Position numbers and translations under genes: made by a program
From: Myxococcales bacterium
GTDB taxonomy: Bacteria; Myxococcota_A; Polyangia; Polyangiales; Polyangiaceae
Length of the DNA stretch: 64,000 nt
Reading direction: 5' to 3'
NCBI GenBank assembly: GCA_005777185.1
Contig: SXNL01000007.1
Location: forward strand, 1-64,000
Part shown: one piece after another, positions 58,745 through 64,000 of the stretch
How the letters are laid out: each line of letters begins with the position of its first letter
Position numbering within the stretch: the first letter of the stretch is position 1
Notes under the pieces: model-generated
What the model saw: the letters and a program-made list of their open reading frames with translations, nothing else
The model's database searches: none
What the model was told of the DNA's origin: nothing

Positions 58745-60697
58745 TCACGCCATCGGGACGAGCCGGACGCGCTCGTCGTAGAGGGCACCGCCCTCGCCGA
58801 GGTCGGTCGTCGCGGCGCGGATGAGGACGTTCGGGCAGCGACCGTCCCTCAGGTGCCCGCCCTTCGGCACGATGGCGACGTCGCGGCGTTGCTCGGCGTC
58901 GTGCTTCACGCGCACGGTCATCGACCCGATGCGAGACTCGAGCCGGCCTTCTCCCCCATCGGCGATCCCGGAGGCGGCGTCGGGGTGAACCGTCACGACG
59001 GCAGGACCCCTGGGCTCCTTCGCCCACTGAGACGACTGGGAGCGCTCGGTCGAGAGGGACATCAGGACAAGCGGGTAGCTCACGTCGCCGGGCTCGGCGC
59101 TCGGCCTCGCGGGCGGCTCGGTGATGAGGTTCACGCGACCGCTCGGGGTCGGAAAGCGTCGGTCGGCGAAGAGGATCCGGGGCGCGAGCGGATTCTTCAC
59201 CGGACCGCGATCCAGCGTCTCGAGCGTGACCCCGGCGGGCTCCATCCTGGAGCCGAGGAGGCGCCGCTTCCACGACGCGGCGTCCCCGTCGATCGCGTCG
59301 CCGAGGCCCACGCGGGACGCGAGGGCCTGCATGATCTCCAGGTCGCTCCGTACGTCGGCCGGGGGCGCAACGACCGGGCGCGCCGAGCCCAGGTAGTGGT
59401 GACCGTAGGCGCCGAGGAGATCGTCGGCCTCCAGCAGCGTGGTCGTCGGCAGGACCAGGTGCGCCTCGCGCGCGGTGTCGGTGAGGAACGCGTCGACCAC
59501 GACCACGAGCTCGCGCGTCGCGAGCGCCTCGCGCGTCGTGTTCGAGTCCGGCAGCATCGCGACGGGGTTGCCCGCGGTGATCCACACGGCGCGGATCGGC
59601 GGATCTCTCGCGGCCAGCACCTCCCTCCCGAAGAGCGGCTCGCACACCGAGCGCGGCGCGGCGCTGAGCCCACGCACGAAGGAGGTGTCGAACGCCCCGC
59701 GGCGCTTGTAGTAGAACGACACGCCGCCGCCCGGGATCCCGATGTTGCCGCTGAGGGCCGCGAGCGCGTCGAGCGCGCGGACGATGGCCGCCCCGTTCGC
59801 GCGGCGGCCCATGCCCCACCCGACGAGGATCGCCGTCGGCTTCTCGGGCCCGAGCCTCCTCGCGAGATCCTCCGCGCACGCCGGCGGCACGTCCGCCTCC
59901 TCGCACCACGCCTCGACGGATCGTGCCTCGCACATGCGGCGGAAGTCGGGCACATGATCGCAGTACCGCTCCGCTTCGCGGTCGATCCACCCCCGCTCGA
60001 ACAGCACCCGCGCGACGGCCATCGCGAGTGCGAAGTCACCGGCGGGGCGCGGCTGGAAGAAGACGTCGCAGTGGCTCCGCGTCTTGTGACTCACGGGATC
60101 GATCAGCACGAGCTGTGCGCCGCGCGCCCTCGCCTCGAGGAGCACAGGCAGCACGTGCGGATTGGACACCGTGACGTTCTTCCCCCAGACGAGGATGTGC
60201 CGAGCGTTCAGGAGATCGTGGAGATCGTTCGAGTCCTCGTCTCCGAAGTCGGTCGCCTGTGCGGCGTCCCCCGCGCCCGAGCAGATATCGCCGCGCTTCA
60301 CCGTCACGGGCCCGAAGCGCTCGAAGAACAGGTCGGTGAGGCTCTTCAGGAGACCGAGCGATCCGCCGCTCCTGTAGTGGAAGATCGCCGCGGGCCCGGA
60401 CTCGCGACGGATCGCGAGGAGGCGCTCCGCAGCGAAGTCGAGCGCCCGCTCCCACGACACCGGGCGGAGCTCGCCGTCGATGCGGAGGAGGGGCGACGAC
60501 AGCCTGTCCAGCGAGTACTGCCTCCCGAGGAAGTGCTGCGTCCGGTAGCAGAGGAACCCGCGCGTGATGGGGTGAGCCGGGTCGCCGGCGATGCGCGTCA
60601 CCTTCCCGTCCTCGACGGTGGCGACGATGCCGCACGCGTCGGGGCAGTCGCGGTTGCAGACGGTCTTCCTCGTCTCGGGCATGCCTCTTTCGCTCAC
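58745..60697 (-). CDS. Molybdopterin-dependent oxidoreductase with N-terminal 4Fe-4S motif
   Basis: VCNRDCPDACGIV...RGFLCYR; ILVWGKNVTVSNPH; AVWITAGNPVAMLPDS. Confidence 0.92.
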   Translation of the reverse strand: MSERGMPETRKTVCNRDCPDACGIVATVEDGKVTRIAGDPAHPITRGFLCYRTQHFLGRQYSLDRLSSPLLRIDGELRPVSWERALDFAAERLLAIRRESGPAAIFHYRSGGSLGLLKSLTDLFFERFGPVTVKRGDICSGAGDAAQATDFGDEDSNDLHDLLNARHILVWGKNVTVSNPHVLPVLLEARARGAQLVLIDPVSHKTRSHCDVFFQPRPAGDFALAMAVARVLFERGWIDREAERYCDHVPDFRRMCEARSVEAWCEEADVPPACAEDLARRLGPEKPTAILVGWGMGRRANGAAIVRALDALAALSGNIGIPGGGVSFYYKRRGAFDTSFVRGLSAAPRSVCEPLFGREVLAARDPPIRAVWITAGNPVAMLPDSNTTREALATRELVVVVDAFLTDTAREAHLVLPTTTLLEADDLLGAYGHHYLGSARPVVAPPADVRSDLEIMQALASRVGLGDAIDGDAASWKRRLLGSRMEPAGVTLETLDRGPVKNPLAPRILFADRRFPTPSGRVNLITEPPARPSAEPGDVSYPLVLMSLSTERSQSSQWAKEPRGPAVVTVHPDAASGIADGGEGRLESRIGSMTVRVKHDAEQRRDVAIVPKGGHLRDGRCPNVLIRAATTDLGEGGALYDERVRLVPMA

Positions 60698-62367
60698 TTC
60701 GGGGCTGCACCCGCGACGAGCTCGGCGGCCTTCTTGCGCTCCTCGGCGCGCTTCTGCAGCGCGGGATCGGAGAACGCCGCGGCCGCGCGCCCGAAGCGCG
60801 CCGCCACGTCCTGGAAGTACGCGGCCCTCGCGTCGTCGGGCGGGGCGAGCGCGAGCAACACGGCCGCGTCGTACTCGGCCATCGCGCCGACGGTCGGATC
60901 CTTCGCCAGCGCCTCGAGCGCCTTCACGTCGCGGATCTGGAGCTCGCCGGGGCTCTTCGCGTGCATCATCTGCACCGCGTCGTCGGGCCCGCGGCTGAGG
61001 GCGTCCACGAGCGCGCCGAGGAGGCGGGCGGCGGGATCCGCATCGCCCGCGTGGTGCAGGATGTCGCGGACCGCGTCGAAGTCTGCGCCGCGCCAGTGCG
61101 TGCGCCCGAGGTCGAATCGCACCCGGGTGTACTGCCTCCTCAGGACCGGGTCCGCGAACCGCCGGGGATCCTGGTCGAGCGCGGCGCGCACGGTCCAGGG
61201 CACGCCGCGCTGGAACACGCGGGACAGGACGGACGGGTCCGTCGTGTCCCTCGCCGGGAGGAGAAAGCCCGCGTAGAACGTGGAGAGGACGCCGAGGAGG
61301 GCGCCGTCGTCGGCGGTCACCGGCGGGAGGATGAGATCGTCGAGCATGTCGATCCTTCGCCCCGCGTACATGCGCGCGAGGGTCGCGCGCGCGCGCGTGA
61401 CGCGTGCATCATGCACGAACCCGACGCTGGCCAGCTCGCGCAGGCCGAGGAGGACCGCGTCGCGTGCGCGAGCCTTCCGTGGTTCGAGCGCCTGCTCGAG
61501 CGTCACGAAGTAGGCATCCTTCAGCTCGGGATCCTTGTTCCACTCCTCGGGCACGGGGATCTGGCGCGTCCCCTCGATGAAGCGCAGCTCGGCGAGGCCC
61601 GCCTCGATGGCGACGATCGCGCGGCCGTAGAACGCGAGCTTGGCGCCCGCGAGGGAGATCTCCTCGACGATGCGCGCCTGCTCGACGTACCAGTCCTTGA
61701 TGAGCGCCTGCGTGTGGGCGAGCACCCGGTCCTTGGTGAACGGGGGCGCGAGCCTCGGCATGGGGCGCGGCGTGCGGCTGATCCGCGCAGCGAGCGAGAG
61801 CCCCGCCAGGGTGTGACTCAGGAGCGGCGACGTGCCCGCCTCGGGCTTGCGGATCGCAGCATCGGCGATCGCGTCCGCGCACTCCAGCGGCGCGAGATCG
61901 GCGCGAAGCGTTCGCACGAAGCCCGCGGGCCATGGCTGCTCCACGGTGAACCCCGGACAGCGCTCGAGCGCGGCGAGCTGTGCGTCCCGCTTGCCGGGAT
62001 CGGCCTCCTTCAGGGCGCGCTCGAGGGCAGGACGCGGGAGCGGGCAGTCCTTCCCCGTCGTCAGGCGCGTCGCATAGGCCGCGCACGTCGCGGGCGCCGG
62101 TGGCACGCCCTTCACCTTCGTGGCGCGCTCCCACTCGGCCATGTCGGGCGCCACGATCGGCAGCGCGTACCCGGGCTCCTTCCTGGCGGGCGGCGGCTTC
62201 ACCGCGACCTTCGGCGCCTCCGCGGGCGGTGCGGCCGAGGCCGTGGCGACCGGCGCGCTCGCGGCGAGCGCTGGCGCCTCGGGCACCTTCGGCGGAGGCG
62301 TGGGAGCCTCGCCACACGCGAGGGCGAGCCCACAAAGGGAGAGACACCCGAGGAGCACGTTTCTCAT
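60694..62367 (-). CDS. Hypothetical lipoprotein
   Basis: MRNVLLGCLSLCGLALACGEA lipobox; ATGA junction with the molybdopterin gene. Confidence 0.78.
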   Translation of the reverse strand: MRNVLLGCLSLCGLALACGEAPTPPPKVPEAPALAASAPVATASAAPPAEAPKVAVKPPPARKEPGYALPIVAPDMAEWERATKVKGVPPAPATCAAYATRLTTGKDCPLPRPALERALKEADPGKRDAQLAALERCPGFTVEQPWPAGFVRTLRADLAPLECADAIADAAIRKPEAGTSPLLSHTLAGLSLAARISRTPRPMPRLAPPFTKDRVLAHTQALIKDWYVEQARIVEEISLAGAKLAFYGRAIVAIEAGLAELRFIEGTRQIPVPEEWNKDPELKDAYFVTLEQALEPRKARARDAVLLGLRELASVGFVHDARVTRARATLARMYAGRRIDMLDDLILPPVTADDGALLGVLSTFYAGFLLPARDTTDPSVLSRVFQRGVPWTVRAALDQDPRRFADPVLRRQYTRVRFDLGRTHWRGADFDAVRDILHHAGDADPAARLLGALVDALSRGPDDAVQMMHAKSPGELQIRDVKALEALAKDPTVGAMAEYDAAVLLALAPPDDARAAYFQDVAARFGRAAAAFSDPALQKRAEERKKAAELVAGAAPK

Positions 62368-62410
62368 CGGGTGCCATGAAAGCACACGACCCGCGAGAGC
62401 GGATCGGCGA

Positions 62411-63058
62411 TCAGCACATCGCGCCGCGAGGCACGCACGCCATCCGGCCCCAGCAGGCCTGGCAACTCCCGCTGCTCGCGCAGCCGTTCGTCCGGCAGTC
62501 GGCGACGCAGTCGTAGCTCGTCGTGCAGCCATCGGCGTCCTGCTTCGGGACGATGCGGCCGCGTGGGCAGAAGCTCGGTCCCGGTGGGACGAGCGCGGGG
62601 CACGACTTGCCGATGACCTTGATGGTGAGCTCGAAGGTGTCGGCGGGCGTGCCGTTCGCGCCGCGCTTGTACTCGAGCCGGATCTTGTGCTCGCCCACCA
62701 TGTCGAGCGGGCCGGTCAGCTTCCACGTCATCTTCTGGACGCCACCCGATCCCACGGCCCCGCCGTTCGAGACGTACTTCTCGGTCGGGTAGCCGAAGGT
62801 CCGGTCGGTCGAGACGACCTGCCACTTGTAGCCCGTCGTCGCGTTGCTCTTCAGGTTCAGGAGGACGTTCTGACCCATGGGGACCGTGACGGTCCTGCCG
62901 TCGTCGGCCTCGGTGAACGTGCGCGCCCTGATCTCGTCTGCGCCCGACACGTCCTCGTCGCTGTTCGCGGGCTCGGCGCCATCGTCGGCGCTGGCGCACG
63001 CGAGGGGAGAGAGGGCGAGGGCGAGGGCGGCAGCGGCGAAGAACGGGGAGAGGCGCAT
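62411..63058 (-). CDS. Chagasin-like (I42) cysteine protease inhibitor with Cys-rich C-terminal extension, secreted or lipoprotein
   Basis: SPLACASAD signal; VLLNLKSNATTGYKWQVV, AVGSGGVQKMTWKL, IRLEYKRG match the chagasin NPTTGY.W / GxGG / YKRPW loops. Confidence 0.85.
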   Translation of the reverse strand: MRLSPFFAAAALALALSPLACASADDGAEPANSDEDVSGADEIRARTFTEADDGRTVTVPMGQNVLLNLKSNATTGYKWQVVSTDRTFGYPTEKYVSNGGAVGSGGVQKMTWKLTGPLDMVGEHKIRLEYKRGANGTPADTFELTIKVIGKSCPALVPPGPSFCPRGRIVPKQDADGCTTSYDCVADCRTNGCASSGSCQACWGRMACVPRGAMC

Positions 63059-63280
63059 GACGGCTCCTTGTCGAGGTGTGCCGATGTGAGTGCACGCCGT
63101 ATGCCCGCACTTGCACTCAATGAAATCAATGCTTTGTCGCATCGGCCCAGGAGGGTTGTTCACTTACCTGGTGGGATAATTACTCACCCGCTCTCTCCCT
63201 CGTCGGCACCAGGTGACCCGGAAATGTCGAGGAAACCGGCACGTCCGGCGCGGCACGGTTGGTGCGTCGGAGCAGCGCCC

Positions 63281-64000
63281 ATGCGCTCGCGACGTCCCGC
63301 CCTCGCCCTCCTGTTCGCCCTCGCGAGCACGCCCCTCACCGCTGGCTGCGCCGCCGAGGTCGACGAGGTCGAGTCCAGCGAGGAGGGCCTCACGCGGGTC
63401 ACCGAGGCCGAGCGCGCGGCCGCGCAGGCGACTCCCATCGATGGGTTCGCCTACGATCGCCTCACGCCGACCAGCGCGCGCATGATGCGCGCCGCGCGGT
63501 GGTGGATGGGGGCGCAGGACGAGAGTCCCCGCTACCCCAAGCCGCGCATGTGCGCGACCAACGTCTCCAAGGTGCTCTTCCTGTCGGGCATCACGTCGTT
63601 CGATCAGGAGGGCGTGCGCGCCATGCTCGCGGACGTCGCGGCCGGCGGCGCGCGCGTCCACAAGTTGCCGATGGCCCACGCCGACTTCGTCGCCGCCCTC
63701 AACACCATCGACGGCGGCCACATCCCCGCCGGCACGCTGGTGGCGGGGATGAACATCCACACCTCGAGACCCGGCGACCAGCACATCGGCATGATCGGCC
63801 ACACCGACCCCGACGGCACGGTGTGGATCTACCACAACAACTGGTACCGGCCCGAGAACGAGGCGGGCCTCCGCAAGGACCACATGATCTCCGACGAGAA
63901 CCTCCGGCGCGGCTTCCCCCGCCAGTGGATGGCGACGCCGTGGCTGCGCGTCACGCGTGACGCGAGCGGGAAGATCACCCGCGCGACGTCGCTCTTGCCC
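63281..64000 (+). CDS. Secreted cysteine-peptidase-like protein (CHAP/NlpC-like by motif), truncated at the right edge
   Basis: Manual translation: MRSRRPALALLFALASTPLTAGCAAEVDE...YPKPRMCATNVSKVLFLSG...GDQHIGMIGHTDPDGTVWIYHNNWYRPENE...; lipobox TAGC; Cys then His order. Confidence 0.7.
   Translation, partial: MRSRRPALALLFALASTPLTAGCAAEVDEVESSEEGLTRVTEAERAAAQATPIDGFAYDRLTPTSARMMRAARWWMGAQDESPRYPKPRMCATNVSKVLFLSGITSFDQEGVRAMLADVAAGGARVHKLPMAHADFVAALNTIDGGHIPAGTLVAGMNIHTSRPGDQHIGMIGHTDPDGTVWIYHNNWYRPENEAGLRKDHMISDENLRRGFPRQWMATPWLRVTRDASGKITRATSLLP

What the first reader, a model, noticed from the sequence alone, without database searches (positions are those of the whole stretch)
62411..64000. 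Divergent pair: chagasin-like cysteine-protease inhibitor and secreted cysteine-peptidase-like protein
The minus-strand product carries the chagasin loop signatures (NATTGYKW, GSGGVQ, LEYKRG in place of YKRPW) after a signal peptide, plus a Cys-rich tail. The divergent plus-strand product has a lipobox and the ordered elements MCATNVSKVL (candidate nucleophile Cys), GDQHIGMIGH (candidate His) and VWIYHNNW. Inhibitor and candidate target share a 222-bp intergenic region. This suggests an enzyme/immunity-like or self-protection module, possibly a secreted effector. Functional pairing is inference.
Basis: partly seen in the sequence, partly recalled or inferred. Interest (0 to 1): 0.7.

Follow-up and report, generated by a model that had tools for sequence, protein, structure and literature searches.

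The report
Chagasin beside unrelated orphan lipoprotein
Two secreted proteins really do sit back to back here, a standard bacterial cysteine-protease inhibitor and an undescribed lipoprotein that probably has a papain-type enzyme fold, but relatives do not keep them together; in related bacteria, chagasin-type inhibitors instead sit next to genuine papain genes.

Summary
Window 62411-63058(-) is a chagasin-family inhibitor (Pfam I42, E=6.5e-13) with a Cys-rich tail. The divergent gene 63281-64084(+), whose stop lies 84 bp past the window, is a 267-aa lipoprotein. It belongs to an unnamed family: no Pfam, NCBIfam or PDB sequence match, 9 members found. Lipobox Cys23, Cys91, His168 and HNNW(185-188) are invariant. 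AlphaFold2 gives a confident model (pLDDT 91, pTM 0.90). Its best structural matches are papain-like enzymes, led by CHAP lysins, but all are weak (best E=3.5e-3). "Papain-like cysteine hydrolase" is therefore likely, not shown.

The inhibitor/target pairing is not supported. Of 8 other genomes with the lipoprotein, none has an I42 gene nearby. Four have no I42 at all; in the other four, including the same-genus genome, it is on another contig.

Across 108 genomes of the bacterial family, 7 of 36 I42 genes lie within 2.5 kb of a true papain (Peptidase_C1) gene on the same strand (0.04 expected). The enzyme-inhibitor module therefore exists in these bacteria, with papain as partner. The window genome encodes its own papain-like lipoprotein on another contig. 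Best reading: two independent envelope lipoproteins, adjacent by chance.

The parts
62411..63058 (-). Chagasin-family (I42) inhibitor, predicted lipoprotein/secreted, 215 aa, with Cys-rich C-terminal tail (about 60 aa)
   Evidence: Pfam PF09394 49.2 bits, E 6.5e-13; orthologues with the same tail in G233, G298, G286, partly G192
63059..63280 (.). 222-bp divergent intergenic region
   Evidence: sequence; the divergent arrangement is not found in any relative
63281..64000 (+). Orphan-family predicted papain-like cysteine-hydrolase lipoprotein, first 240 of 267 aa; stop at window-equivalent 64084 outside the window (L005 7282-8085)
   Evidence: AlphaFold2 pLDDT 91.1 / pTM 0.90 for the mature domain; Foldseek top hits CHAP/papain-like, best E 3.5e-3
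60694..62370 (-). Next gene downstream of the inhibitor on the same strand (40-bp gap), uncharacterised predicted lipoprotein; not conserved beside the orthologous inhibitor in the same-genus genome
   Evidence: no Pfam match over cut-off; the gene after the G233 orthologue is a different one

Best explanation
Two independent exported lipoproteins that happen to be neighbours. The minus-strand protein is a chagasin-type (I42) inhibitor that blocks C1 papain-family proteases. Its target is either the cell's own C1 papain-like lipoprotein, encoded elsewhere in the genome (contig C80), or proteases of other organisms. It would work by wedging its three loops (NATTG, GxGG, and the altered KRG in place of RPW) into the papain active-site cleft. 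The plus-strand protein belongs to an undescribed family of envelope lipoproteins with a papain-like (CHAP/NlpC-like) fold. It probably uses Cys91 as nucleophile, His168 as base and Asn187 (or His185) as third residue to hydrolyse an amide bond, perhaps in peptidoglycan or protein. Shown: I42 membership, residue conservation, a confident model, lack of conserved pairing. Inferred: fold class, catalysis, substrates and targets.
For: Inhibitor: I42 E 6.5e-13. [quoted passage not shown] The own genome has a C1 gene, PF00112 5e-13, 571-aa predicted lipoprotein. No conserved pairing: I42 is absent in G231 and G221 and in G444 and G471, and on other contigs in G233, G192, G286 and G227. tblastn of the window chagasin finds nothing significant in the stretch held around each of the 8 lipoprotein loci, most of them about 10 kb each side but some limited by short contigs. 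Within genus g4 there is no association: I42 in 2 of 4 carriers and 4 of 8 non-carriers, P=1. True module: 7 of 36 I42 genes lie within 2.5 kb of and co-oriented with a C1 gene, 0.04 expected. Plus-strand protein: invariant Cys/His/HNNW. In the model Cys55 (=91) is in the first turns of helix 52-65, His132 (=168) starts strand 131-139, and H149/N151 (=185/187) end strand 144-151, which is the papain-like order. Foldseek hits: PlyPy (CHAP), phytochelatin synthase, LysGH15 CHAP, TseH, interpain.
Against: Presence of I42 and of the lipoprotein family is mildly associated over the whole bacterial family (5 of 7 carriers versus 29 of 108; P=0.015), though not corrected for phylogeny or genome size. 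No Foldseek hit reaches E<=0.001, and profile-profile comparison with local CHAP domains is not significant (Prob 0.4%, E 0.15). Active-site distances could not be measured because coordinates are not returned. The window inhibitor has an altered L6 loop, so papain inhibition is not certain.
Confidence: 0.75

Rival explanations
1. One reading: a recently formed enzyme/inhibitor (immunity-like) module in which the chagasin protects the cell from the neighbouring cysteine hydrolase.
For: Divergent adjacency with a 222-bp shared region; both are exported; mild presence/absence association across the family, P=0.015; I42-enzyme neighbour pairs do occur in these bacteria.
Against: Not adjacent in any of 8 other carriers, 4 of which lack I42; no association inside genus g4; the plus-strand protein is not a C1 protease (no PF00112 match), and no chagasin is known to inhibit another class (PMC5014320). 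An orthologue of the same tailed inhibitor occurs in G298, which lacks the lipoprotein.
Confidence: 0.05
2. The plus-strand protein is not an enzyme: the conserved Cys/His/HNNW residues are structural or metal/ligand binding in a non-catalytic lipoprotein.
For: No significant sequence or fold match to any enzyme family.
Against: Invariant Cys at a helix start, His at a strand start and Asn on the next strand is the papain-like order, and the leading fold hits are mostly papain-like cysteine enzymes.
Confidence: 0.2
3. The tailed chagasin lipoprotein acts outward, shielding the cell against papain-like proteases of prey, predators or competitors, as proposed for soil Pseudomonas chagasins and shown for Cip1 against tomato proteases.
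For: Exported, Cys-rich tail, not linked to C1 genes in any of the tailed orthologues examined; G298 and G226 carry I42 but no detected C1 gene; precedent PMC5014320.
Against: The window genome does encode a C1 papain-like lipoprotein, and 87 of 108 family genomes do, so an own target is equally possible. G298 is only 72% complete.
Confidence: 0.4

Closest known systems
Chagasin / inhibitor family I42 (T. cruzi chagasin; Pseudomonas Cip1)
   Same: Same domain by HMM, L2 and L4 motifs, exported like Cip1
   Different: L2 NATTG instead of NPTTG, L6 KRG instead of RPW/F, Cys-rich C-terminal tail, predicted lipoprotein anchor
CHAP and NlpC/P60-type papain-like hydrolases (PlyPy, LysGH15, TseH)
   Same: Order Cys (helix start) - His (strand start) - Asn/His on the next strand; leading fold-search hits
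   Different: No significant sequence or profile match, conserved HNNWYRP, QWMxTPW and DDMDP blocks of its own, lipoprotein anchor, extra N-terminal helices
Papain-chagasin (Peptidase_C1 + I42) gene pairs of the same bacterial family (e.g. L101, L104, L106)
   Same: I42 inhibitor next to a cysteine hydrolase
   Different: True C1 papain, co-directional (4 to 22 bp gaps or a 19-bp overlap in the three examples), recurrent in 7 genomes; the window pair is divergent, unique, and its enzyme is not C1
Staphopain/staphostatin operons (from own knowledge)
   Same: Bacterial cysteine protease with a neighbouring dedicated inhibitor
   Different: Unrelated inhibitor fold; not compared here

Membership tests
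Inhibitor I42 (chagasin), minus-strand protein | Pfam PF09394 over the curated cut-off | tested here: met
   49.2 bits vs 27.2, E 6.5e-13
Inhibitor I42 (chagasin), minus-strand protein | L2 NPTTG and L4 GxGG loops | tested here: met
   NATTG (P to A) and GSGG in the window protein; most relatives NPTTG/GSGG; motifs defined in PMC2607524
Inhibitor I42 (chagasin), minus-strand protein | L6 RPW/F motif | tested here: not met
   KRG in the window, KRA in G233; RPW or RPF in 5 of the 8 aligned sequences. W93A left cruzipain inhibition intact but cost 100-fold for cathepsin L in chagasin (PMC2607524), so this variation is within the family and changes expected affinity rather than membership
Inhibitor I42 (chagasin), minus-strand protein | Inhibits a C1 papain-family protease | not testable with these tools
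   needs an assay
CHAP (PF05257), plus-strand protein | Pfam CHAP HMM match | tested here: not met
   no Pfam family for the window protein or 6 homologues even at E<=10 apart from one spurious hit; own genome has no CHAP hit
CHAP / papain-like fold, plus-strand protein | Papain-like fold in a structure comparison | tested here: inconclusive
   best hits PlyPy E 3.5e-3, prob 0.84; LysGH15 CHAP TM(target) 0.41; none at E<=0.001; hhalign vs CHAP E 0.15 but His and Asn in register
CHAP / papain-like fold, plus-strand protein | Conserved Cys, His and Asn/Asp/Glu in order | tested here: met
   Cys91, His168, H185/N186/N187 invariant in 9, placed at helix start, strand start and next strand
CHAP / papain-like fold, plus-strand protein | Catalytic residues close together in space | not testable with these tools
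   model coordinates are not returned
Peptidase_C1 papain (PF00112), plus-strand protein | PF00112 match | tested here: not met
   no match; the only C1 of the genome is on C80
Enzyme/inhibitor (immunity) gene pair | Adjacency conserved in relatives | tested here: not met
   0 of 8 other carriers; 4 lack the inhibitor

The most novel reading that the evidence does not exclude
A chagasin-fold inhibitor has been recruited to control a non-C1, CHAP-like cysteine hydrolase lipoprotein of a previously undescribed family, a target class not known for any chagasin.
Probability: 0.04. Interest if true: 0.65.

Novelty: new variant of a known kind. Interest (0 to 1): 0.33.

Why it matters
The window pair itself is modest: one more bacterial chagasin and one small undescribed family of probable papain-like lipoproteins. 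The useful by-product is a set of co-directional papain (C1) + chagasin (I42) gene pairs in at least three architectures in the same bacterial family. A 2016 paper states that the role of bacterial chagasins had not been elucidated (PMC5014320); these pairs name specific endogenous targets and make the question directly testable.

Tried and rejected
Amidase_6 (PF12671) as the plus-strand family: no match in the own genome. Phage, plasmid and viral collections: no homologue. The genome-contig scan failed three times by machine error and then counted as used, so homologues outside the phylum sample are unknown. PDB sequence search with the family profile: only chance hits. PHROGs: one member each at E 0.02-0.4, some labelled endolysin, treated as chance. 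Weak hits in G176, G246, G173, G281 and G255: the G176 and G246 hits are unrelated proteins on inspection; the others match only the N-terminal quarter of the profile. The family-wide co-occurrence signal (P=0.015) was rejected as evidence of pairing because it vanishes within genus g4 and both f60 carriers lack I42.

Full report
OBSERVATION. The two genes are as described. On the minus strand, 62411-63058 encodes a 215-aa exported protein with the loops NATTGYKW, GSGGVQ and LEYKRG and a Cys-rich tail. Pfam assigns it to the chagasin family I42 well over the cut-off (49.2 vs 27.2 bits). On the plus strand a lipoprotein starts at 63281, leaving a 222-bp divergent gap. The window cuts it; on the contig it runs to window-equivalent 64084, 267 aa.

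PLUS-STRAND FAMILY. Whole-genome searches found homologues in 6 other genomes of the same bacterial family (7 of 108 with the window genome) and in 2 of 3 genomes of another family of the phylum. None was found in plasmids, phages or viral contigs. No Pfam, NCBIfam or PDB sequence match exists. The alignment shows an invariant lipobox Cys23 (7 full-length rows) and, over 9 rows, invariant Cys91, His168, HNNW 185-188, WM.TPW and DD.D. Three homologues (L019, L044, L045) carry an extra C-terminal region with Cys-rich repeats that match no family.

FOLD. AlphaFold2 on the mature domain with 9 sequences gives mean pLDDT 91.1 and pTM 0.90. Cys91 lies near the start of a helix, His168 at the start of a strand, and H185/N187 at the end of the next strand. 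This is the order seen in CHAP, NlpC and papain-type enzymes (family knowledge). Foldseek's first hits are the CHAP lysin PlyPy (E 3.5e-3, prob 0.84), a phytochelatin synthase, the LysGH15 CHAP domain, TseH and interpain, but none reaches E 0.001. A profile-profile comparison with CHAP domains from related genomes is not significant, though it puts His168 and Asn187 opposite the CHAP His and Asn. I conclude 'probable papain-like cysteine hydrolase of an undescribed family'; catalysis is inferred. Its substrate is open, with peptidoglycan or protein the likeliest.

PAIRING TEST. In G231 and G221 the lipoprotein exists without any I42 gene; likewise G444 and G471. In G233 (same genus), G192, G286 and G227 both exist but on different contigs. 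tblastn of the window inhibitor against the stretch held around each lipoprotein locus finds nothing significant; most stretches reach about 10 kb either side, but G227 (5 kb), G471 (3.3 kb) and G233 (10.9 kb) are whole short contigs. The same-genus orthologue of the inhibitor (62% identity, same tail) is preceded by other genes over the 7.8 kb available. Over the bacterial family, presence is mildly associated (5 of 7 carriers have I42; P=0.015). Within genus g4 it is 2 of 4 versus 4 of 8, P=1. So the pairing is not supported.

WHERE CHAGASINS DO PAIR. Comparing the places of I42 and Peptidase_C1 in 108 genomes showed 7 of 36 I42 genes within 2.5 kb of a C1 gene on the same strand; 0.04 expected by random placement (the seven are not fully independent by descent, so the formal P-value overstates). 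Six have the papain first and the inhibitor after it: L101 (19-bp overlap), L104 (4-bp gap), L106 (22-bp gap), L105, L102 and L103. The C1 domain is full length in the four scanned (L101, L103, L104, L106: PF00112 E 1e-45 to 2e-44), and both genes pass Pfam in L101, L104 and L106. The seventh, L107, is an IrrE-like (M78) protein fused to I42, followed by a partial C1 domain. These are real enzyme-inhibitor neighbours. The window genome's single C1 protein is a 571-aa predicted lipoprotein on contig C80, unlinked to its inhibitor. Published work says chagasins so far target only C1A proteases and that the role of bacterial ones was not elucidated (PMC5014320); L2/L4/L6 roles are in PMC2607524. 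My literature searches found no report of papain-chagasin operons or of chagasins in myxobacteria, but the library is open-access only.

VERDICT. Observation confirmed; chagasin identity confirmed; papain-like enzyme plausible; inhibitor-target pairing not supported. The window inhibitor's L6 loop is altered (KRG instead of RPW/F), so its affinity should be measured rather than assumed.

Noticed in passing
L101 2395-5177, L102 2623-5329, L103 796-3515, L104 2377-5206, L105 2609-5433, L106 2808-5385: Papain (Peptidase_C1) genes followed, same strand, by a chagasin (I42) gene, in several architectures (TPR-like or DUF346 repeats on the papain). Genuine enzyme-inhibitor gene pairs.
   Followed up: partly
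L107 3-1455: A protein with an IrrE-like M78 domain fused to an I42 chagasin domain, followed by a small ORF with the second half of a Peptidase_C1 domain.
   Followed up: partly
L073 6588-7340 and L074 1738-2511: Chagasin lipoproteins with a different Cys-rich tail; the L074 one weakly matches the NCBIfam 'eight-cysteine-cluster' domain (TIGR04289, below cut-off).
   Followed up: no
L019 9097-10389, L044 8835-10196, L045 192-1508: Homologues of the plus-strand lipoprotein carry about 150-170 extra C-terminal residues with repeated GPF...C...GGG..C...RWS units that match no Pfam or NCBIfam family.
   Followed up: partly
L005 10808-13673 (beyond the window) and L017 9380-13006: A helicase-like gene and its neighbour, about 3 kb downstream of the plus-strand lipoprotein in the window genome, lie directly beside the lipoprotein gene in G286, the clearest sign of a conserved neighbourhood.
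   Followed up: no
window 60694-62370: Uncharacterised predicted lipoprotein downstream of the inhibitor on the same strand, no Pfam match over cut-off.
   Followed up: no
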